Below, piece by piece: positions 13,464 to 33,317 of a stretch of 64,000 nt of DNA (its first letter is position 1; every line of letters begins with the position of its first letter). The DNA is from Flavobacteriaceae bacterium (GTDB taxonomy: Bacteria > Bacteroidota > Bacteroidia > Flavobacteriales > Flavobacteriaceae). The notes below the pieces were generated by a model. That model worked only from the letters and a program-made list of their open reading frames with translations, did not search any database and was not told the origin of the DNA. The stretch is taken from the NCBI GenBank assembly GCA_018657955.1, contig JABHWD010000020.1, positions 1 through 64,000 on the forward strand, given 5' to 3'. Position numbers and translations under genes: made by a program.

Positions 13464-14023
13464 CTTTGGAAGAAATTGATATTCAACTATTAGTTTACTT
13501 AAATTCATTAGGATCAGAATTCTGGGATCCTTTATGGATAGTATTAACTAATAAACTAACTTATATTCCTTTATTTATTTTTATTGTTTTTAGAATTTAT
13601 AAGAAATTCGGGGTAAAACAAATGCTATTTATCTTATTTTTCATTGCTTTATTAATTTTATTTACTGATCAATTTACTAATTTCTTTAAAGATTCCTTTC
13701 AGCGATTAAGACCTTGCAGAGCGGAGTATTTAAACTTACGACAGATTGATATATATTGTGGTAAATATGGTTTCTTCTCAGCTCATGCTTCTAATTCAAT
13801 TGCAGTTTCACTATTTCTTATTAGAGTAATGAAAGAGAGGTTTAGCAGTCTATTTTCAATTTTCTTATTTCTCTGGGTTTTTATATTTTCTTATAGTAGA
13901 ATATACCTTGGGTTACATTACCCAGTAGATATATTATTTGGTTTACTTTTTGGTGCTATTTCTTCAAGTATTTTTTACACTATTTACTTAAGAATTAACA
14001 ATTATTTTCTTGATAAAATATAA
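13460..14023 (+). CDS. PAP2-family membrane phosphatase
   Basis: This 187-aa membrane phosphatase belongs to the PAP2 acid-phosphatase family, acting on lipid phosphates such as undecaprenyl pyrophosphate or lipid A phosphate. The three catalytic motifs are present: KDSFQRLRP (about 76-84), SAHASNS in place of the usual PSGH (about 106-112), and SRIYLGLHYPVD (about 145-156) with the catalytic His and Asp. Five to six helices are visible. It is translationally coupled to the MATE gene by a 4-bp overlap, and its 3' end overlaps the convergent GT39 gene by 22 bp. The substrate cannot be assigned, though the lipid-linked sugar genes next door make undecaprenyl or lipid A substrates plausible. Confidence 0.9.
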   Translation: MTLEEIDIQLLVYLNSLGSEFWDPLWIVLTNKLTYIPLFIFIVFRIYKKFGVKQMLFILFFIALLILFTDQFTNFFKDSFQRLRPCRAEYLNLRQIDIYCGKYGFFSAHASNSIAVSLFLIRVMKERFSSLFSIFLFLWVFIFSYSRIYLGLHYPVDILFGLLFGAISSSIFYTIYLRINNYFLDKI

Positions 14024-15576
14024 AAATTTGTTGCAAGCCGATATTTATATCGATCACTTTCTTCTGTAGTTGTATTAAAATCTAATTCAATTTTCTTATT
14101 TATTATTAGTTTGTTCTCTATGATATTAATGTTTGTAGCATCAAAATTTTCATTGGAAATTAGAGCAAAAATTGAATCATTAATTTTAGATAATTCTAGT
14201 TTTTTAACTTTTTTATTTAGATTCCATATCAGATCAGGAGTAATGTTGTAATCAGAATATAGTTTTAATTCTTTGATATCATGATGTAATTTATCTGTAG
14301 AGGTATAATTGGTATTAGTATTTAAATACATTTGTGGTAGAATAAAATTAATCATAGTAAAAAAGAGAATAATTTTTAAATAAATGACCTTATCAAACTC
14401 TTTTTTATAAAAATTATAAATAAAACTTAATGCTATTATAATTGTGATTGTTGAGAAAAAACTAAATCCATAATTATATATATAAATAGTTGGTATAATT
14501 ATGCCTGCAATGGATATTAAAATAAAATTTAGGTATATAGGCCAAAGTGATGAGATTGTCTTCTGTTTTGAATACTTAATAATGTAGTTAATGTAGAACC
14601 CAGTATTTAGTGCTAAAGGCATAAGTACAGGCACTATATATCTGGTCTTTTTTTCTGGAATTAATGATAATAAAATAACAGAAATTATAACCCAATAACA
14701 GGTTAGTAGGTGATTTTTATTTATTGAGATTTTACTATTTATAAATGGTAATATTAAACTAGTTATCGCAGGGATTAACCAAATTCCACTATTAATGAAA
14801 AAATCCCAATAGTAGTAGAATGGTTTTAAGTTATAATTGAACCAATTTTTAGTCTCCTGAGAGGTAGTATCTAGTAATGTCTGGTGATCCTGGATATATA
14901 CATATATATACCATAAACCACCAGAAATAATTGAAACAAACAGAATTTGAATAAGATCACTAATGCTAATATTAATTTTCTTATAAACTATGAGATATGA
15001 TAATAAAAAAGGGATTAATAATACATAAATTGAAATAGGGCCTTTAGACATAATAGAGAGCCCAATTAATAAACCTATAAGTATATTTTTTTTTAGAGTA
15101 AATTTATTTTCTAATGAACTAAAAAGATAATAGATTGCTAGGAACATAAAACTATGTGCAAAAATATCCCAGGGAGCTTCAAATATGATGGCAATTATAT
15201 AAATAGAGCTTAGAGATATCAATCCATTAATAATGCTTTCCTGTTTGTTGAATTTAATTTTAAGACTAAAAAAATAGCTAGTAATACCAATAACAAATAA
15301 AAATAAAATTGCAGGAATTCTATAAAATATAATTGATTTCGAATTGAACAATAAAACAGAAAATGCAGTTAGCCAAGTAGGTAATGGGGGCTTCTGATAT
15401 CTAGGCTCTCCATTTAAAGTTGGAAGAAGCCAGTTATTATCTTCAACCATCTCTTTTGCAGTTTGAAAATTCCTAGCCTCCATGATTCCAACTTCTATTA
15501 AATTAAATGTAGAAATTGAATATGCTAATAGAATTAAAATAATTATTGAGAAATAATTTTTCTTTAAAAAACTCAC
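14002..15576 (-). CDS. GT39-family (ArnT-like) membrane glycosyltransferase
   Basis: This 524-aa integral membrane protein has about a dozen helices and the ArnT/PMT pattern. A periplasmic loop after helix 1 contains the acidic catalytic motif EARNFQTAKEM (about 33-43) and RYQKPPLPTW (about 57-66). Family members transfer a sugar from a polyprenyl-phosphate donor to lipid A or a glycan outside the inner membrane. The start is GTG at 15576. The chosen start is supported by an upstream remnant of the LAB_N gene whose stop overlaps it as GTGA. GT2 and LAB_N genes lie upstream on the same strand but are now separated from it by a 3-kb insert. The acceptor is unknown. Confidence 0.9.
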   Translation of the reverse strand: MSFLKKNYFSIIILILLAYSISTFNLIEVGIMEARNFQTAKEMVEDNNWLLPTLNGEPRYQKPPLPTWLTAFSVLLFNSKSIIFYRIPAILFLFVIGITSYFFSLKIKFNKQESIINGLISLSSIYIIAIIFEAPWDIFAHSFMFLAIYYLFSSLENKFTLKKNILIGLLIGLSIMSKGPISIYVLLIPFLLSYLIVYKKINISISDLIQILFVSIISGGLWYIYVYIQDHQTLLDTTSQETKNWFNYNLKPFYYYWDFFINSGIWLIPAITSLILPFINSKISINKNHLLTCYWVIISVILLSLIPEKKTRYIVPVLMPLALNTGFYINYIIKYSKQKTISSLWPIYLNFILISIAGIIIPTIYIYNYGFSFFSTITIIIALSFIYNFYKKEFDKVIYLKIILFFTMINFILPQMYLNTNTNYTSTDKLHHDIKELKLYSDYNITPDLIWNLNKKVKKLELSKINDSIFALISNENFDATNINIIENKLIINKKIELDFNTTTEESDRYKYRLATNFYILSRK

Positions 15577-15608
15577 GGCTTCTTTTTGTTAATATATATA
15601 AAATAAAT
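15551..15608. repeat. 58-bp direct repeat, copy A (5' end of GT39 gene + relic of LAB_N 3' end)
   Basis: The segment matches 18653-18710 at 56 of 58 positions; the mismatches are 15558/18660 and 15577/18679. On the minus strand it contains a relic tail IYFIYINKKKP plus TGA, in the LAB_N reading frame, followed directly by the functional GTG start and first eight codons of the GT39 gene. Confidence 0.95.
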
Positions 15609-15649
15609 TTTAATCTCCATAAAAAAATAATATATTACCCTTACTGATT

Positions 15650-17059
15650 ATGAAAAAAATTATTTCAATCATTTTTATTTCTATTTTATTTATTTCTTGT
15701 TCAGACCAAGAAAAAAAACTACCAAATATTATTGTTATAATAAGTGATGACCAAGGTTATGCTGATGTTGGTTTTCATGGAAGTAAAGAAGTTAGAACTC
15801 CTAATATTGATAGAATTGCTAATAATGGAGTAGTATTTTCAGAGGGATATGTTTCATATGCGGTATGTTCACCAAGTAGAGCTGGGTTGATAACTGGTAG
15901 GTATCAAAATAGATTTGGTTATAGTAGAAATATTTTATTAACTCCTAAAGATTCAACTATGGGACTTCCTTTGTCTGAACAGACACTTCCTGATGTTCTT
16001 AAAGAAGTTAATTATAAGACAAAAGCTATTGGAAAATGGCATCTAGGGGCTCATGAATCTTTAGTTCCTCAAAAAAGGGGTTTTGATGAGTTTTATGGCT
16101 TTGTTATTGGCGGTCATAGATATTTCCCTAAAGACTTAACATTAAATGACTTAACTGAAGCTAGATCTCAGATGGATGGTTATATAACTAAGATATTTGA
16201 TAATGGTAAGAGGGTAGACATATCTAAATATCTTACTGAAGAATTATCAGATAATGCAGTAAAATTTATTGATGAAAATTCTGAAAACCCATTCTTTGTA
16301 TACCTTTCTTATAATGCCCCTCATACACCCTTACAAGCTACCAAGAAGGATCTAGATAGAAATATGCATATTAAAGGAGAGAAGAGAAGAACATATGCAG
16401 CCATGGTCACATCACTAGATGATGGTGTTGGCTTAATTTTGGATAAACTTGTAGAAAAAAATATATCTGATAATACAATAGTTGTTTTCTTTTCAGATAA
16501 TGGTGGTGTGGAATGGTATAATCACTCAGATAACGGTATTTTAAGGGGAGGGAAAGGTGAATTTTTTGAAGGAGGAATACGTGTTCCATTTGTTATGCAG
16601 TGGCCAAATGTAATTCCTGCTGGATTAACTTATGATAAACCAATTATTTCCCTAGATATTTTTGCAACTGCAGCATCTGTTGCGAATGCTGAAAAATATA
16701 TTGATGGAGATATAGACGGCGTTAACCTAATACCTTATATTTTAGGACAGAAAGATGGTTTGCCACATAAATTTCTTTACTGGCAGAACAGGGATAAAGA
16801 TATTGATGTGATAAGAGGAGAAAGATATAAGTACCTTAGAATGGCCGATGAAGAATTTATTTTTGATTTAAAGAATGATATTAGTGAGGAAAATAATATA
16901 ATTGATATTTCACAAGAAATTTATGATGATTATAAGTTCAGATTCAAAGAGTGGGATAAGGAGATGATTGATCCTATTTTTCTAGATTTAGGTAGTGGAA
17001 AACAATATAATAAACTTCATCCAGACAGGTGGTATAACTCTAGTTCAAAGAAACAGTAA
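15650..17059 (+). CDS. Type I sulfatase lipoprotein
   Basis: This 469-aa arylsulfatase-family enzyme hydrolyses sulfate esters, in marine Bacteroidota typically on algal polysaccharides. Residues 1-17 form a lipoprotein signal (LFISC, Cys17), so the protein is membrane-anchored. Metal-binding DD is at 33-34 (ISDDQGYAD). The active-site motif CSPSR starts at Cys73, the residue to be converted to formylglycine by an FGE located elsewhere. GKWHLG and the second-half SDNGG complete the sulfatase pattern. It stands alone on the plus strand, convergent with the PhoD-like gene (20-bp overlap). No polysaccharide-utilisation SusC/D pair is nearby, so the substrate is unknown. It lies in the inserted segment. 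Confidence 0.95.
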   Translation: MKKIISIIFISILFISCSDQEKKLPNIIVIISDDQGYADVGFHGSKEVRTPNIDRIANNGVVFSEGYVSYAVCSPSRAGLITGRYQNRFGYSRNILLTPKDSTMGLPLSEQTLPDVLKEVNYKTKAIGKWHLGAHESLVPQKRGFDEFYGFVIGGHRYFPKDLTLNDLTEARSQMDGYITKIFDNGKRVDISKYLTEELSDNAVKFIDENSENPFFVYLSYNAPHTPLQATKKDLDRNMHIKGEKRRTYAAMVTSLDDGVGLILDKLVEKNISDNTIVVFFSDNGGVEWYNHSDNGILRGGKGEFFEGGIRVPFVMQWPNVIPAGLTYDKPIISLDIFATAASVANAEKYIDGDIDGVNLIPYILGQKDGLPHKFLYWQNRDKDIDVIRGERYKYLRMADEEFIFDLKNDISEENNIIDISQEIYDDYKFRFKEWDKEMIDPIFLDLGSGKQYNKLHPDRWYNSSSKKQ

Positions 17060-18638
17060 TAGGCCATCCCTTAAATTGTTTTGGATTATTTAATCTAACG
17101 TCCTCATATCTTGGCCAACACTCAAAAATTACATCGTTTCTTTCCTTATTAAATTTTATTATTCCATATCCAGCTCCATTAGAATCGGCATCAGGATTAG
17201 CATATGCATGCATCGTAATTTTATTATCAAATCCATCTTTATACCTTCCTGTCCACGGTAAAATATTATTAGGATTATTATCAATTTTTTCATTTTCTGG
17301 CCACCACCACCTACTATAGTAGTTATTTACAATAGCTGGTACAACAAAAGCCCATGGACCATCCTCATAATCATCAATTCCATGATGAATTACAGTGGCA
17401 ATATGTTGATCTCCACCGATATGAATAGCATTTGCACCCTTAATAAGCTCTAATGCTTTATTTCTGCCTCTCTGTGGCCATCCATTTGAATCTAGGTCGG
17501 CATGAAGTCTATTCTCTTCACTTCCATGGAGATGAGCTCCTCCACAGAAACCAGTCTGGGACAAAACTGCCTTCATTACTGAATTATTTTCCCCCCATTC
17601 ACTAAGAAACTTGAGCTGCCTATCACCAAGTAACTTTAATCCATCCATATCAATTGATTTTGGATTATAATCAGGGTTTCTTATGTGATCTGGTCTTGGT
17701 CCTTGTTGAGGTATTTTTCCTTTAGGCCCAGACTTAAACTTTCTATCTTCAATGATTGCAAAATCTATTCCTCCAAGGAGAAGGTTAGTATAATACACAC
17801 CTATTCCTTGCTTGATAGGAGTTTTATCATAAGGATCTGGAAGGTGATTAGTTTGTGCCCTTTCTACCATCTTTATGTATTCATGGTGATAGTAATAACC
17901 TCCATTATTTCCTGCTGATGATGAAGCAATTTTCCCGTTTTCTCCCCATAAATTACCTTGACCAATATCATGATCGTCAGGTATAGTTATGCATGGTCTC
18001 TCCCTAAAAATATCTCTAAACTGCATTCCGAACTTCAACCATGCAGCAGTATGTTCTTTCTCGTCATAAGACTGATCTCCAGCAAAAAATAAAATATCAG
18101 GATCAATATGATTTATATTTTTAACATAATTCTCTCTATCTCCTCTGTCTTTATTACTATTACATGAGAATGCAGCCATAACAATCTCATTTTTATTTTT
18201 AGGATCTTTTCTTACCATTCCTTCAAAGAGGGCATCATCACTATGTCTTAATCTATATTTTATATTTTTTGAATCATCCCAATTTTCTATCCTAAAAGTT
18301 GTAGCCCATCCTATTTCATTAATTTTTCTTGATTGTATTTCTTTCCAGCTATCATCTTGATAAATTTCTAATCTAACCTCTCTGCTTTCATCTGGATAAA
18401 GTGGAAAAAGTTGTGCAGTAAGTTTAAGAGTTTTATTAGACACTGTATAAATGCCAAAGGCTACAACATCATCTCTGTCAACTTTTAAATTAACTATTGG
18501 ATTTTCAGAACGATTCCACCAATCATTTGTTGATAAGGTGTCTATATTTGAAAATGGCGATTTAATAGGTTCTTTTTGTTTATTACACCCAAATGCAATA
18601 AGCGTTAGTAAACAAAGAGTAATTCTTATATATCTCAT
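17040..18638 (-). CDS. PhoD-like metallophosphatase lipoprotein
   Basis: The 532-aa protein is an alkaline phosphatase D (PhoD-like) family phosphoesterase. A lipobox (LIAFGC, Cys18) directs it to a membrane. An N-terminal Ig-like part covers about 35-145. The catalytic domain follows, with metal-ligand motifs FFAGDQSYDE near 183, IPDDHDIGQG near 222 and HIGGDQHIA near 407, and FVVPAI further on. PhoD enzymes cleave phosphodiesters or phosphomonoesters using Fe/Ca. The 3' end overlaps the sulfatase by 20 bp. The pair may act together on a sulfated or phosphorylated glycan, which is inference from adjacency. Base composition looks richer in G+C than surrounding genes. Confidence 0.88.
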   Translation of the reverse strand: MRYIRITLCLLTLIAFGCNKQKEPIKSPFSNIDTLSTNDWWNRSENPIVNLKVDRDDVVAFGIYTVSNKTLKLTAQLFPLYPDESREVRLEIYQDDSWKEIQSRKINEIGWATTFRIENWDDSKNIKYRLRHSDDALFEGMVRKDPKNKNEIVMAAFSCNSNKDRGDRENYVKNINHIDPDILFFAGDQSYDEKEHTAAWLKFGMQFRDIFRERPCITIPDDHDIGQGNLWGENGKIASSSAGNNGGYYYHHEYIKMVERAQTNHLPDPYDKTPIKQGIGVYYTNLLLGGIDFAIIEDRKFKSGPKGKIPQQGPRPDHIRNPDYNPKSIDMDGLKLLGDRQLKFLSEWGENNSVMKAVLSQTGFCGGAHLHGSEENRLHADLDSNGWPQRGRNKALELIKGANAIHIGGDQHIATVIHHGIDDYEDGPWAFVVPAIVNNYYSRWWWPENEKIDNNPNNILPWTGRYKDGFDNKITMHAYANPDADSNGAGYGIIKFNKERNDVIFECWPRYEDVRLNNPKQFKGWPITVSLN

Positions 18639-18652
18639 CTTATTGTATTAAA

Positions 18653-18710
18653 AAATAATATTTCTTTAAAAAACTCACTGCTTCTTTTTGTTAATATATA
18701 TAAAATAAAT
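18653..18710. repeat. 58-bp direct repeat, copy B (3' end of LAB_N gene + relic of GT39 5' end)
   Basis: This is the partner of 15551-15608. On the minus strand it holds the genuine C-terminus of the LAB_N protein (IYFIYINKKKQ, TGA) followed by a relic GTG and codons reading VSFLKKYY, against MSFLKKNY at the true GT39 start. The two copies are 3102 bp apart. Confidence 0.95.
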
Positions 18711-19310
18711 ATTTCTTGAATATATAATGATTCCTGCAATATGACTAAAAAATAAAACAGGATCTTCTCTAAAAATAGAATATGTAATTATTAAAATAGC
18801 TCCTAGAATACTTATAGCCCAAAATCCTAATGGCAGATGAGATTTTTTTGAAATTTCCGACGACATCCACTGATATATATATCTAAAAGTAAATGTAATT
18901 TGTGAAATTATTCCCAGATATAACAGCCACTGCGGTATGTCAGGATTATAAAAAAGTGACTCTAAATCAAAGAAATTAGAATTCCATGCTCTTTCTATGC
19001 AAATTAAAATAGGTAATAATATTATAATTCTCCTAATTACTATATTGTAGTCTGTCCACTTTTTTTGTAATTGTAAATTTCTAATATATATATAATAACC
19101 TATGAATTGACCTAGCATAATAGCAAAGTCATCTCTGAAATAGCCATACACAAAGAATAATAAAGATCCTATTATACTTAATATCCAATAAATTGTTGGT
19201 GTTATTACTTTTGCCTCTCTTTCAGAGTAAAACCATTGAATAATAACTCTTGAACTAAAAAAGAATTGAGCAAGAAACCCTAGTGAATATAAATAAATTA
19301 GGTCATTCAT
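18675..19310 (-). CDS. Membrane protein with two tandem LAB_N (lipid A biosynthesis N-terminal) domains
   Basis: The 211-aa membrane protein contains the LAB_N fold twice. The first copy, about 1-75, has LGFLAQFFFSSRVIIQWFYSE and later FVYGYFRDDFAIMLGQ. The second, about 128-205, has LGIISQITFTFRYIYQWM and ITYSIFREDPVLFFSH. LAB_N domains were named from the N-terminus of some LpxB proteins and also occur alone as small membrane proteins beside lipid-linked sugar transferases. The GT2 gene upstream overlaps by 8 bp, so the two are coupled. By analogy with ArnC-ArnEF-ArnT, it may move the polyprenyl-phosphate sugar across the inner membrane. That is inference. Confidence 0.88.
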   Translation of the reverse strand: MNDLIYLYSLGFLAQFFFSSRVIIQWFYSEREAKVITPTIYWILSIIGSLLFFVYGYFRDDFAIMLGQFIGYYIYIRNLQLQKKWTDYNIVIRRIIILLPILICIERAWNSNFFDLESLFYNPDIPQWLLYLGIISQITFTFRYIYQWMSSEISKKSHLPLGFWAISILGAILIITYSIFREDPVLFFSHIAGIIIYSRNIYFIYINKKKQ

Positions 19311-20013
19311 TATCTTTTATTTGGTAATTAATATATTTTTTTTTCATCCAAATAAATGCAAAACAATCAGACAAGGGGCCTAATATTCTATTAAATAATC
19401 CAAATTTTGCTTTTCCAGCTATTCTTGGAAAATGTTTTACCGGAATCTCAATAATTTTACCTTTTTGAAGAAGTATCATTGCTGGCAGAAATCTATGCAA
19501 TCCCTTAAACATTGGAATTCTTTTTGCAAAATCAGTCTTTATTACTTTTAATGGACACCCTGTATCATTTACGCCATCATTAGTAAATATGTTTCTAATA
19601 CCGTTTGCAACTAAAGATGATATATTCTTTAAATAAGAGTCTTTCCTATTAGATCTATAACCTGTAATAAGATCATACTGATCAATATATTTTAATAAAA
19701 TATGAAAATCGCTTGGTGATGTTTGCAAATCAGCATCAATATATCCTATATATTCTGAATTACATAAATCAAATCCAGCTTTTAATGCACTGCTAAGTCC
19801 AGAATTTTTTATAAAAGAAACAGATTCAAAGAAATCATTTTTTTTACAAATTTTATTGATAATATCTTCGCTTCCATCTGTAGAGCCATCATTTATTAAA
19901 AGAACTTTAGTTTCAAATACTGTAGAATTAATAAACTTCACTAATTCGCTTTCTAGTCTAGATAAATTATCTTTCTCATTGAATACAGGCACTATTATTG
20001 TAAATGTGGACAT
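19303..20013 (-). CDS. GT2-family polyprenyl-phosphate glycosyltransferase (DPM1/ArnC-like)
   Basis: The 236-aa GT-A glycosyltransferase begins TFTIIVPVFNEKDNL and carries the acidic metal/nucleotide-sugar motif DADLQTS near 93-99, with a DPM1-type ending GKAKFGLFNRILGPLSD. Such enzymes load a sugar onto undecaprenyl or another polyprenyl phosphate at the cytosolic face. It lacks the C-terminal membrane helices of ArnC-type enzymes. It is followed by the LAB_N and formerly adjacent GT39 genes, giving donor synthesis, translocation and transfer in one operon. MeaB's stop lies only 2 nt upstream of this ATG, so the transcript may start further back. Confidence 0.9.
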   Translation of the reverse strand: MSTFTIIVPVFNEKDNLSRLESELVKFINSTVFETKVLLINDGSTDGSEDIINKICKKNDFFESVSFIKNSGLSSALKAGFDLCNSEYIGYIDADLQTSPSDFHILLKYIDQYDLITGYRSNRKDSYLKNISSLVANGIRNIFTNDGVNDTGCPLKVIKTDFAKRIPMFKGLHRFLPAMILLQKGKIIEIPVKHFPRIAGKAKFGLFNRILGPLSDCFAFIWMKKKYINYQIKDNE

Positions 20014-26517: not shown

Positions 26518-27585
26518 TTATCTAAATAAATTAAAATCAAATTTCAATGAAAAGATATTAGAATATAAAGCAATACTTTGATTTCCTATATCAGTAAATG
26601 CATAGTCCATTTCAATGCTTTTATATTTAAATCCTATTCCAAAATTTGGCTGAAAACTAAGTTCTTTTGAATTATCAAATTGTAATTCATTTTGAAAATT
26701 ACCGATGCCTAATCTTAAAAAAACTAAGTCAAGATAGCCAAACTCTAGACCTAATGCAGGGTTTATACTAGCAAAATTAGTTGAAATTATATCATTATTC
26801 TCTTCAAATTTAAGTATTAGATCTAATGCTGCTAATAAAGTGTAACTATTTTTAATATCTATTTCTTTTGAAGCTCCTAATTGCAATTTTGGAATAGTTA
26901 TTTCAGTTCCGCTAGGTATTTCTTGATTTTGACCTTCAATTGCATTTTGAATATCACCTAATCTATCTTCATTTATAGACCAAGAATTATAAGTAGTTGT
27001 AATATCTCTTGCCATCAAGCCAAAGTTCCAATTATTACTTGTTTTAAACTGTATTCCAAAATCCATTCCAAAACCCCAAGAACTAGAAAAATCTCCAATT
27101 ATTCTTCTAATTATTTTTATATTAACCCCATAGTTCAAATTCTTAAATTTTAATTTTCTTGCATAGGAAAACAAGAATGCATAATCTGCAGTTGAAAACA
27201 AGTTAATTCTGTCAAAATTTATATTTCCCTGATCATCTATTAATTGTGTTGTGTCTAATATATCGTCAACCCCAAACCTAATCATAGAAAAGCCTAGTGC
27301 AGATTCATCATCAATTGGTGTTGCGTATGCAACAAAATTATACGTAGCGATGTTGGCAAAATAGTTTGAATGCATTAAGGAGATCTGCTTGTCTTTTAAT
27401 TGCAGCAAACCAGCTGGGTTCCAATAAGTAGAATTAACATCAGATGTACTAGATACAACAGCATTACTCATGCCAATTGATTGAGCATCTACACCAATAT
27501 TTAGGAATTCATTAGAATATTTTGAACTATCCTGTGCATTTACTCCTATAATGGAAAATAATAATAAGAAAATTAGCTTTTTCAT
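26518..27585 (-). CDS. PorV/PorQ-family outer-membrane protein (PorV2-like)
   Basis: The 355-aa beta-barrel protein of the T9SS-associated PorV family has a signal peptide (MKKLIFLLLFSIIGVNA). The first barrel segment carries the family pattern EFLNIGVDAQSIGMSNAVV and STYWNPAGL. Alternating hydrophobic strands run to the C-terminal SLKFDFNLFR with terminal aromatic residues. PorV relatives receive or shuttle T9SS cargo at the outer membrane. PorV2 is a paralogue of unproven role. I prefer the ATG at 27585 because it starts the signal peptide directly; an in-frame codon at 27600 adds five residues. The upstream region contains an exact 41-bp tandem repeat. Confidence 0.85.
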   Translation of the reverse strand: MKKLIFLLLFSIIGVNAQDSSKYSNEFLNIGVDAQSIGMSNAVVSSTSDVNSTYWNPAGLLQLKDKQISLMHSNYFANIATYNFVAYATPIDDESALGFSMIRFGVDDILDTTQLIDDQGNINFDRINLFSTADYAFLFSYARKLKFKNLNYGVNIKIIRRIIGDFSSSWGFGMDFGIQFKTSNNWNFGLMARDITTTYNSWSINEDRLGDIQNAIEGQNQEIPSGTEITIPKLQLGASKEIDIKNSYTLLAALDLILKFEENNDIISTNFASINPALGLEFGYLDLVFLRLGIGNFQNELQFDNSKELSFQPNFGIGFKYKSIEMDYAFTDIGNQSIALYSNIFSLKFDFNLFR

Positions 27586-27600
27586 TATTGATGATATCAA

Positions 27601-27682
27601 TAAAAACTTCTAAATGACTTGCTTATTGTGTTATAATAATATAAAAACTTCTAAATGACTTGCTTATTGTGTTATAATAATA
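27601..27682. repeat. 41-bp perfect tandem duplication between porV2 and pssA
   Basis: Positions 27601-27641 and 27642-27682 are identical, and the first seven bases of a third unit (TAAAAAC) follow at 27683-27689. The repeat occupies most of the gap between the divergently transcribed porV2-like and pssA genes. No TAnnTTTG box is visible in it on either strand. Confidence 0.95.
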
Positions 27683-31124: not shown

Positions 31125-33317
31125 ATGAAAATCAATGATAATCTTATCCGCGATTCATTAAAAAAAATTTTTGGTTTTGATGAGTTTAAAGGACTACAAA
31201 AAGAAGTAATTAGCAATATTTTTGAGAATAAAAATACATTTGTCATTATGCCGACAGGTGGCGGTAAGTCTCTATGTTATCAATTGCCTGCTCTTATGAA
31301 AGAAGGCACTGCAGTAGTTGTCTCTCCACTTATTGCACTTATGAAAAATCAAGTTGATCATATAAGAGGTTTTTCTAATATAAATGGAATAGCTCATGTT
31401 TTAAATTCTTCTTTAACAAAAGATGAGCAGAAAAAGGTAAAAGACGATGTAAATAAAGGGATTACTAAACTCTTATATATGGCTCCAGAATCTCTTTCAA
31501 AGGAGTCTAATATTGAATTTCTTAAATCAAACAATATTTCTTTATTAGCTATAGATGAAGTTCACTGTATAAGTGAATGGGGACATGATTTTAGACCAGA
31601 ATACAGAAATTTAAGGTTATTAGCTGATAAAATTGATAAAAATATTCCAATTATTGCTCTCACAGCAACTGCTACTCCAAAGGTACAGTCAGATATATTG
31701 AAAAACTTAAATATTCCTGATGCCAAAATTTATAAAGCATCATTTAATAGACCTAATTTATTTTATGAAGTTCGTTATAAGAGAGATAGCGTAGATTCAG
31801 ATCTAATTAAATTTATTAAAAATAATAGTAGTAAATCAGGTATAATATACTGTTTGAGTAGAAAAAGAGTTGAAGAAGTAACTAATTTACTCCAACTTAA
31901 TAGTATAAAGGCATTGGCTTATCACGCAGGTTTAGATTCTAAAACTAGATCTAATAACCAAGATTTATTTTTAAAGGAAGATGTGGATGTAATTGTAGCA
32001 ACAATTGCCTTTGGGATGGGTATTGATAAGCCAAACATAAGATTTGTAATCCATTATGATGTGCCAAAAAGCTTAGAGAGTTACTATCAGGAAACTGGTA
32101 GGGCAGGAAGAGATGGAGGTGAAGGGCATTGCCTAGTCTTTTACTCATACAAGGATATTGAAAGATTGGAAAGGTTTATTACATCTAAAACTAATTCAGA
32201 ACAGCAATTATCTTCTTTATTGTTAGAAGAAATGGTTTCTTATTGTGAAACATCTATTTCTAGAAGAAAGTATTTGCTTAATTATTTTGGAGAAGAATTT
32301 GATAATAATACTGGTGATGGAGGTATGCTAGATGATAATATGGCAAATCCTAAAGAAAAAATTGATGTAAAAAAAGAAATTATAATATTACTCAACCTTA
32401 TTGATAAAACAAAACAAATTTATAAATCGAAGGAATTGATAGATATTTTAATAGGTAATGAAAGCTCTGTAATTAAATCTCATAAATTAAATGAAAAATC
32501 ATTTTTTGGTATTGGTAAAAATTATGATAAGACTTTTTGGACAGGATTAATTCGACAACTGATAGTTGCCCGTTTTATAGAAAAGAATATAGAATCTTAC
32601 GGTATTATTTTAATTAATGAAAAAGGAAATAAATTTTTATCTAGTCCGAAAACTTTTCAAATTTCTTTAGATCATGAATATTCCGATGATGATAAAATCT
32701 TAACTCATATTAAAGGTGGTATGTCTGCTGATTTAGAGTTAATGTCAATTTTAAAAAAATTAAGAAAACAAATTTCAAACAAACTCAATCTTCCCCCTTA
32801 TATAATATTTCAAGACCCTTCATTAGAAGATATGACCTTAAAATATCCCATAACAATCAGTGAAATAGCTAATATTCATGGAGTAGGTGAGGGTAAGGCA
32901 AACAAATATGGAAAAGAATTTGTTGATGTAATCTCTAAATATGTAGAAGAAAATAATATTAGCAGGATTGATGATTTTGTGGTAAAAACTGCTGGATCGA
33001 ATTCAGCACTAAAACTTTATATAATACAGAGTATTGATAGAAAATTATCTTTTGAGGATATCATATCTTTTAAAGGCCTTAAAATGGACGAGTTTGTTAA
33101 AGAGATGGAGTCAATTATTTATTCTGGAACTAAGCTAGATATTTCTTATTGTACTGATGATGTATTAGATGAGGATCAACAAACTGAAATTAATGATTAT
33201 TTCATGGAAGCTGAGAGTGATGATATTAAATTGGCAATGGATGAGTTTGATGGTGAATATGAAGAGTTTGAATTAAGAATTTATAGAATAAAATTCTTAA
33301 GTGAATTTGCAAACTAA
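31125..33317 (+). CDS. recQ: ATP-dependent DNA helicase RecQ
   Basis: This 3'-5' SF2 helicase acts in recombination and fork repair. Motif I is TGGGKS at 45-50, motif II DEVH near 145 followed by CISEWGHDFRPEYR, motif III TATATP, and motif VI QETGRAGRDG near 325. The RQC region and a C-terminal HRDC-like segment (LNLPPYIIFQDPSLEDM, about 545) complete the 730 aa. The zinc-binding cysteines normally following the helicase core are absent: only one Cys (SYCETS) remains, and the CGxCDxC stretch is replaced by an Asp/Gly/Asn-rich segment. This loss is familiar from flavobacterial RecQ. Confidence 0.96.
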   Translation: MKINDNLIRDSLKKIFGFDEFKGLQKEVISNIFENKNTFVIMPTGGGKSLCYQLPALMKEGTAVVVSPLIALMKNQVDHIRGFSNINGIAHVLNSSLTKDEQKKVKDDVNKGITKLLYMAPESLSKESNIEFLKSNNISLLAIDEVHCISEWGHDFRPEYRNLRLLADKIDKNIPIIALTATATPKVQSDILKNLNIPDAKIYKASFNRPNLFYEVRYKRDSVDSDLIKFIKNNSSKSGIIYCLSRKRVEEVTNLLQLNSIKALAYHAGLDSKTRSNNQDLFLKEDVDVIVATIAFGMGIDKPNIRFVIHYDVPKSLESYYQETGRAGRDGGEGHCLVFYSYKDIERLERFITSKTNSEQQLSSLLLEEMVSYCETSISRRKYLLNYFGEEFDNNTGDGGMLDDNMANPKEKIDVKKEIIILLNLIDKTKQIYKSKELIDILIGNESSVIKSHKLNEKSFFGIGKNYDKTFWTGLIRQLIVARFIEKNIESYGIILINEKGNKFLSSPKTFQISLDHEYSDDDKILTHIKGGMSADLELMSILKKLRKQISNKLNLPPYIIFQDPSLEDMTLKYPITISEIANIHGVGEGKANKYGKEFVDVISKYVEENNISRIDDFVVKTAGSNSALKLYIIQSIDRKLSFEDIISFKGLKMDEFVKEMESIIYSGTKLDISYCTDDVLDEDQQTEINDYFMEAESDDIKLAMDEFDGEYEEFELRIYRIKFLSEFAN

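What the first reader, a model, noticed from the sequence alone, without database searches (positions are those of the whole stretch)
15551..18710. 58-bp direct repeats frame a sulfatase/phosphatase pair inserted into a GT2-LAB_N-GT39 operon, with both neighbour genes restored
15551-15608 and 18653-18710 match at 56 of 58 positions. Copy B contains the true last codons of the LAB_N gene and then a relic of the GT39 start (VSFLKKYY). Copy A contains a relic of the LAB_N tail (IYFIYINKKKP, stop) and then the true GT39 start (MSFLKKNY). In both copies the stop and start overlap as GTGA. The simplest reading is an ancestral LAB_N-GT39 junction duplicated when about 3.04 kb was gained, so neither gene was broken. 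No integrase or transposase is visible, and 58 bp is long for a transposition target duplication. Campbell-type recombination of a circle carrying the junction, or a duplication followed by replacement, would explain it. The repeats also make the cassette excisable by recombination.
Basis: partly seen in the sequence, partly recalled or inferred. Interest (0 to 1): 0.78.

Follow-up and report, generated by a model that had tools for sequence, protein, structure and literature searches.

The report
Gene pair inserted with duplicated junction
In an uncultured marine flavobacterium, two enzyme genes were inserted between two overlapping genes of an operon by an event that copied the 58-base junction on both sides, so neither neighbour was broken; the same thing happened at two or three other places in this genome, a known but rarely described way for bacteria to gain genes.

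Summary
15551-15608 and 18653-18710 match at 56 of 58 bases and are the only copies found in the genome. Relatives show what happened. In 17 genomes outside the genus LAB_N lies directly beside GT39 with no pair; one genome of the genus (G003) has the empty junction with the GTGA overlap; three others (G001, G004, L097) carry the pair. Two more keep only the sulfatase: a shared deletion fused the LAB_N end to a PhoD fragment, and an inversion later broke one of them there. Sulfatase divergence shows that the insertion predates the split of the genus's two clades. A genome scan found the same signature elsewhere: a DUF2855 gene between DUF885 and proline racemase (~78 bp), a sialidase-like pair after a CDGSH gene (~66 bp), and probably a fourth case (71 bp). 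Empty sites in relatives confirm the first two. The repeats are unrelated in sequence, and no integrase, transposase, Ku or ComEC was found. This matches 'insertion with long target duplication', described in Helicobacter. Template switching is my preferred mechanism but unproven. The Campbell circle is unnecessary; in-situ excision is not demonstrated.

The parts
14002..15576 (-). GT39/ArnT-like glycosyltransferase; start codon GTG lies in repeat A
   Evidence: Pfam PMT_2 E 4e-11; NCBIfam ArnT-like weak match E 7e-15
15551..15608 (.). Repeat copy A: relic of the LAB_N 3' end (IYFIYINKKKP, stop) followed by the true GT39 start
   Evidence: 56/58 identity to copy B; relic retained in G001, G004, G005, G002
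15609..18652 (.). Inserted segment of about 3.04 kb, G+C 32.7% against 24.6-26.9% for the neighbouring genes
   Evidence: absent from G003 and 17 outgroups; G+C
15650..17059 (+). Sulfatase, lipoprotein-type signal, motif CSPSR for the formylglycine residue
   Evidence: Pfam Sulfatase E 2e-61; relatives in the genus 80-95%, nearest found outside 52-58%
17040..18638 (-). PhoD-like phosphatase, lipoprotein-type signal, convergent with the sulfatase
   Evidence: Pfam PhoD E 2e-8; relatives outside the genus 65-75%
18653..18710 (.). Repeat copy B: the true LAB_N 3' end followed by a relic of the GT39 start (VSFLKKYY)
   Evidence: present but decaying in G001/G004
18675..19310 (-). LAB_N protein
   Evidence: Pfam LAB_N E 3e-53
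19303..20013 (-). GT2 glycosyltransferase, first gene of the GT2-LAB_N-GT39 order
   Evidence: Pfam Glycos_transf_2 E 3e-23; same order in all 17 outgroups

Best explanation
The locus is an insertion with a long target duplication. An ancestor of this genus had GT2, LAB_N and GT39 in a row, with the LAB_N stop and GT39 start overlapping. About 3.04 kb carrying a PhoD gene and a sulfatase gene was inserted there, and 58 bp of the junction ended up on both sides, so each neighbour kept a complete copy. (Shown: empty and filled alleles, both relics, age before the two clades split.) The duplication was most likely made during the insertion itself: DNA synthesis left the chromosome after the junction, copied or joined the incoming DNA, and resumed 58 bp upstream (template switching), or an equivalent staggered break was filled in. 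(Inferred.) Only events that duplicate more than the overlap leave both genes intact, so selection in a compact operon keeps just those. (Inferred.) Later the PhoD gene was deleted in one branch, a chromosomal inversion broke that branch's locus again, and filled and empty alleles were exchanged by homologous recombination in LAB_N. (First two shown by sequence, last one indicated.)
For: Empty GTGA junction in G003 and LAB_N directly next to GT39 in all 17 outgroup genomes that have LAB_N. Filled site with both relics in G000, G001, G004 and LAB_N-PhoD-sulfatase in L097. Sulfatase dS between clades 1.1, at or above the neighbouring genes (0.6-1.1), and 0.10-0.20 within clades. G005: LAB_N end fused out of frame to a PhoD tail KYKDVRLNNPKQFKILPVTVSLD, relic A kept. 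G002: same fusion, then a break between sulfatase and LAB_N joined to LytTR and priA, which are adjacent in G000. Same signature at C4:31209/32393 (filled G000 and G004, empty G001, G003, G005, G075, G355) and C20:155510/157136 (filled G000, empty G001, G005, G002). Repeat sequences at these loci are unrelated, so an element arriving with its own copy of each junction is implausible. No transposase or integrase ORF in the insert. Ku and ComEC not detected in six genomes.
Against: The event itself is ancient and the duplication step is inferred from its product. Most gene-scale indels between G000 and 0.41 Mb of G004 show 0-25 bp overlaps, not 58-80 bp, so this is a minority process and its trigger is unknown. 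Nothing in the sequence separates template switching from a staggered break or from a recombinase acting in trans. The source of the pair is not identified: sulfatase and PhoD relatives are not adjacent elsewhere in the loci examined. The genomes are incomplete (65-85%), which weakens the Ku and ComEC absences.
Confidence: 0.78

Rival explanations
1. Campbell-type integration: a circular DNA already carrying the pair and one copy of the LAB_N-GT39 junction recombined with the chromosomal junction, giving flanking repeats.
For: Would give the observed structure with no integrase. A similar model was proposed for repeat-flanked transposed genes in Arabidopsis (PMC2869330).
Against: The circle must have obtained this exact junction, so the origin is only pushed back. 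Two other loci show the same signature with unrelated junctions. No other copy of the repeat was found in the genome, and the sulfatase gave no match in viral contigs and only distant ones (below 60%) in phage records; only PhoD was searched in plasmids, with distant matches.
Confidence: 0.1
2. Site-specific insertion by a tyrosine or other recombinase acting in trans, with the repeats as attL and attR at the 3' end of LAB_N.
For: Three of the four repeat pairs include the 3' end of a gene, as att sites often do. The genome encodes a phage-type integrase and dispersed att-like repeats.
Against: The four repeat pairs share no evident motif (by inspection), and the integrase-associated core TGCCTATGGTTTA is absent from them. 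No integrase in any of the inserts. An att site would have to match both sides of each junction over 58-80 bp.
Confidence: 0.07
3. A tandem duplication of the junction came first, and the foreign DNA was inserted between the two copies later.
For: At C20:157050-157190 the right repeat carries three tandem decayed copies of the CDGSH tail, so short tandem duplication does occur at such sites.
Against: Needs two independent events at each locus. The empty alleles of the relatives examined hold a single copy.
Confidence: 0.12
4. The pair is ancestral and the repeats arose otherwise, or the repeats are an assembly artefact.
For: None found.
Against: 17 of 17 outgroups have no pair at this site; repeats present in independent assemblies with separate decay.
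Confidence: 0.01

Closest known systems
Insertion with long target duplication (Nobusato et al. [quoted passage not shown] cited in PMC1643837, PMC3031569, PMC4978471)
   Same: Genes gained at a site that is single-copy in the empty relative and duplicated over tens of bases or more in the filled one; duplications long and variable; no transposase needed.
   Different: There mostly restriction-modification genes; here metabolic and hydrolase genes (sulfatase/PhoD, DUF2855, sialidase-like). Here at least two targets are overlapping operon junctions and both neighbours are restored. Different phylum, and no ComEC found, unlike naturally competent H. pylori.
Minimal mobile elements of Neisseria (gene cassettes without mobility genes between conserved genes, exchanged by flanking homologous recombination; described here from own knowledge, papers listed were not read)
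   Same: Alternative contents (pair, sulfatase only, empty) between the same two conserved genes; evidence of recombination in the flanking LAB_N 3' end.
   Different: Exchange explains spread or loss of alleles, not the duplicated junction.
Repeat-flanked transposed genes of Arabidopsis (PMC2869330)
   Same: Genes at new positions flanked by direct repeats that occur once at the empty site.
   Different: Eukaryote; repeats often chimeric with the donor site; proposed circle-mediated recombination.
Homology-facilitated illegitimate recombination (Acinetobacter, Streptococcus; discussed in PMC2884548)
   Same: Gain of foreign DNA without mobility genes.
   Different: Relies on natural transformation and one homologous end. 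No ComEC was found in these six genomes, and a 58-bp duplication of the recipient junction is not its expected product (own knowledge).

Membership tests
Insertion with long target duplication | Empty allele in a relative with one copy of the target | tested here: met
   G003 and 17 outgroups
Insertion with long target duplication | Filled allele with direct duplication of tens of bases or more, made of target sequence | tested here: met
   58 bp, both copies alignable to the empty allele
Insertion with long target duplication | No IS, transposase or integrase in the insert | tested here: met
   Only the sulfatase and PhoD ORFs of any size in 15609-18652
Insertion with long target duplication | Duplications of different length and unrelated sequence at different loci | tested here: met
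   58, about 66, 71 and about 78 bp at four loci
Insertion with long target duplication | Association with restriction-modification genes (frequent in the original report, not strictly defining) | tested here: not met
   Inserts carry sulfatase/PhoD, DUF2855, BNR sialidase-like genes
Transposon or IS insertion | Transposase and short fixed target duplication | tested here: not met
   No transposase ORF; 58 bp duplication
Integrase-mediated island | Integrase and shared att core among sites | tested here: not met
   No integrase in the insert; repeats of the four loci share no evident core and lack the genome's att-like motif
Minimal mobile element | Different gene contents between the same conserved neighbours in related genomes | tested here: met
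   Pair, sulfatase only, or empty
Minimal mobile element | Exchange by homologous recombination in the flanks | tested here: inconclusive
   LAB_N last 200 bp of G003 anomalous against G005/G002 (p = 5e-6 and 7e-7), other pairs mostly normal
Insertion with long target duplication | Biochemical mechanism (template switching or staggered break) | not testable with these tools
   Only the product is visible in sequence

The most novel reading that the evidence does not exclude
These flavobacteria have a dedicated, still unknown process that inserts foreign genes with target duplications in a narrow 58-80 bp range, preferentially at operon junctions or gene ends, distinct from NHEJ, transformation and known recombinases. 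All four cases fall in this range although a scan for repeats of 28-250 bp would have found shorter or longer ones.
Probability: 0.1. Interest if true: 0.75.

Novelty: new member of a known kind. Interest (0 to 1): 0.45.

Why it matters
It gives a fully polarised example, with empty, filled and decaying alleles, of how a compact genome can gain genes inside an operon without breaking it, and it shows the process is recurrent in one lineage (two confirmed and one probable further case). It extends insertion with long target duplication from restriction-modification genes in Helicobacter to metabolic genes in marine flavobacteria in which neither Ku nor ComEC was found, which narrows the possible mechanisms and gives a signature that can be counted across genomes.

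Tried and rejected
Recent transfer of the cassette between the clades: rejected, sulfatase dS between clades is 1.1, as old as the genome background. Simple in-situ excision in G003: disfavoured by the divergent LAB_N tail, but not excluded; the same tail data also show G005 slightly closer to clade 1 than expected (p 0.01-0.09), so which allele moved is open. Pair as a conserved unit elsewhere: not found; relatives of the sulfatase found elsewhere sit beside other sulfatases, PhoD relatives stand without a close sulfatase relative. Phage or plasmid origin: only distant matches for the sulfatase in phages and for PhoD in plasmids, and none for the sulfatase in viral contigs. Integrase att sites of this genome as the cause: motif absent from the repeats. 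Long-duplication insertions as the main indel type: rejected by the G000-G004 census, about 25 indels with overlaps of 0-25 bp. Further long-duplication cases in the G004 stretches: none clear; L254:18696/19940 (52 bp, 83%) undecided because G000 lacks the region. Fetching the rest of G004 and the Furuta et al. 2010 paper failed.

Full report
WHAT IS THERE. The repeat is real: 56 of 58 positions match between 15551-15608 and 18653-18710 (63 of 68 over 15544-15611 / 18646-18713). It is the best 58-base ungapped match in the window at offsets of 60-25,000; shuffled windows reached 39-40. The genome search returned only these two copies. Copy A holds a relic of the LAB_N end and the true GT39 start; copy B the true LAB_N end and a relic of the GT39 start, with the GTGA overlap in both. 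Between them are a sulfatase (+) and a PhoD-like phosphatase (-), convergent. 'GT39' is an ArnT-like PMT_2 protein and sits in a GT2-LAB_N-GT39 order.

RELATIVES. The genus is an uncultured Flavobacteriaceae lineage: matching contigs belong to MAGs NAT160, MED-G125, bin2o and ERR598985_bin.37 and to AG-319-B23, whose titles name Flavobacteriaceae, Flavobacteriales or Bacteroidetes. That it is marine is my own reading of these isolate names. All 17 genomes outside the genus that encode LAB_N have a GT39 homologue directly after it, and no pair. Within the genus, G000, G001 and G004 carry the pair with both relics; L097 has LAB_N-PhoD-sulfatase too. G003 is empty, with the GTGA overlap. G005 has the sulfatase and relic A, but its LAB_N end runs into the last codons of PhoD, out of frame. 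G002 has the same LAB_N-PhoD fusion, and between it and the sulfatase the chromosome is joined to priA on one side and LytTR-rpsF on the other; these two are neighbours in G000, so an inversion is the simplest reading (a misassembly is not excluded).

ORDER OF EVENTS. Nucleotide identity splits the six into {G000, G001, G004} and {G003, G005, G002}. Sulfatase dS between clades is 1.1 against 0.6-1.1 for neighbouring genes, and 0.10-0.20 within clades, so the cassette was there before the split. PhoD was deleted before G005 and G002 separated; G002 then had the rearrangement. G003's lack of the cassette is secondary on this tree, or G005/G002's cassette came from a deep lineage by allele exchange. 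The last 200 bp of LAB_N differ between G003 and G005 at 18.5% against 7.8% elsewhere (p = 5e-6), while G005-G002 and the pairs within clade 1 are normal there. Recombination in LAB_N is therefore indicated and plain looping-out is not the best account. The direction is unresolved: G005's tail is slightly closer to clade 1 than expected (p 0.01-0.09).

THE SAME SIGNATURE ELSEWHERE. I scanned 1.39 of the 1.44 Mb for direct repeats. Apart from tandem and paralogous repeats and the att-like sites noted below, three more pairs stood out. (1) C4:31209-31286 / 32393-32472: the junction of a DUF885 gene and a proline-racemase-like gene (stop and start overlapping) is duplicated over ~78 bp around a DUF2855 gene; filled in G000 and G004, empty in G001, G003, G005 and two outgroups. 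(2) C20:155510-155575 / 157136-157201: the end of a CDGSH gene is duplicated (~66 bp) around a BNR sialidase-like gene and a 99-aa ORF; filled in G000 only, empty in G001, G005, G002. (3) C20:360321-360391 / 361803-361873: 71 bp, 96%, around a 91-aa ORF and an SDR gene; G005 has one copy of this sequence and a different gene in between, so the history is more complex. The four repeat sequences share no evident motif. All four duplications lie between 58 and 80 bp; with n = 4 this is only suggestive.

MECHANISM. Shown: target duplication at insertion, no mobility gene in the insert, recurrence. Not detected in six incomplete genomes: Ku and ComEC, which argues against NHEJ capture and against uptake by the usual competence channel. 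Census: about 25 gene-scale indels between G000 and 0.41 Mb of G004 had only 0-25 bp overlaps, so this is a minority class. I favour replicative template switching that resumes upstream of where it left (about 45% on its own), over fill-in of a staggered break (about 25%), tandem duplication first (12%), a circle (10%) and a recombinase in trans (7%). Survival of both neighbours is probably a matter of selection: in an overlapping junction only events that duplicate more than the overlap are harmless.

COMPARISON WITH WHAT IS KNOWN. The pattern is the 'insertion with long target duplication' found by Nobusato et al. (2000) between two H. pylori strains, as described in PMC1643837 and PMC3031569 ('long and variable target duplications'). 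The defining features that can be tested are met; the frequent link to restriction-modification genes is not. The original paper was not available to me and Furuta et al. 2010 is not held, so their exact lengths and models were not checked. Variation in content between fixed neighbours resembles the minimal mobile elements of Neisseria (own knowledge). About 10-18% of small variable segments in E. coli, S. aureus and S. pyogenes are flanked by mostly short direct repeats (PMC2884548), which the authors read as deletion events; here the empty outgroups show the opposite direction.

VERDICT. A new member of a known, little-studied kind, with unusually complete evidence and recurrence in one lineage.

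Noticed in passing
own genome G000: C5:8910-9953(-); sites at C5:5363,7185,7533,8269; C18:62817,67071,67896,71075; C19:246; C20:362468,393485; C25:2754,8901,9897,10421; C10:24265; also L253:76 in G004: A phage-type integrase (Pfam PF00589, E 3e-13) whose 3' end encodes LKEEDMPMV carries a sequence repeated at more than a dozen places, core TTTAAAAGAAGAAGATATGCCTATGGTTTA, often preceded by TACAATTTACAATAAT. It looks like att sites of an integrase-linked cassette system; no exact match in viral contigs.
   Followed up: partly
own genome G000 C4:31209-32472; relatives L236-L242: Second insertion with a duplicated operon junction: DUF2855 gene between a DUF885 gene and a proline racemase, ~78 bp duplication, empty in G001, G003, G005 and outgroups.
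   Followed up: yes
own genome G000 C20:155510-157201; relatives L243-L246: Third case: end of a CDGSH gene duplicated (~66 bp) around a sialidase-like gene and a 99-aa ORF, only in G000; the right copy carries three tandem decayed CDGSH tails.
   Followed up: yes
own genome G000 C20:360321-361873; L249 in G005: Probable fourth case: 71 bp repeats (96%) around a 91-aa ORF and an SDR gene; G005 has a single copy and a different membrane-protein gene there.
   Followed up: partly
18675-19310 (LAB_N); L027, L028, L029, L030: LAB_N looks mosaic: G000 and G001 share one N-terminus (MNDLIYLYSLGF/MSELIYLYSLGF) while G004 shares another (IDIPIEIIVLGF) with the other clade.
   Followed up: no
G002 L030:10001-10648 and L062:7765-9872: In G002 the chromosome is broken between the sulfatase and LAB_N and joined to LytTR-rpsF and to priA, which are adjacent in G000: an inversion breakpoint in the same spot, or a misassembly.
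   Followed up: partly
27600-27681: A perfect 41-bp tandem duplication directly upstream of the ORF at 26518-27600.
   Followed up: no
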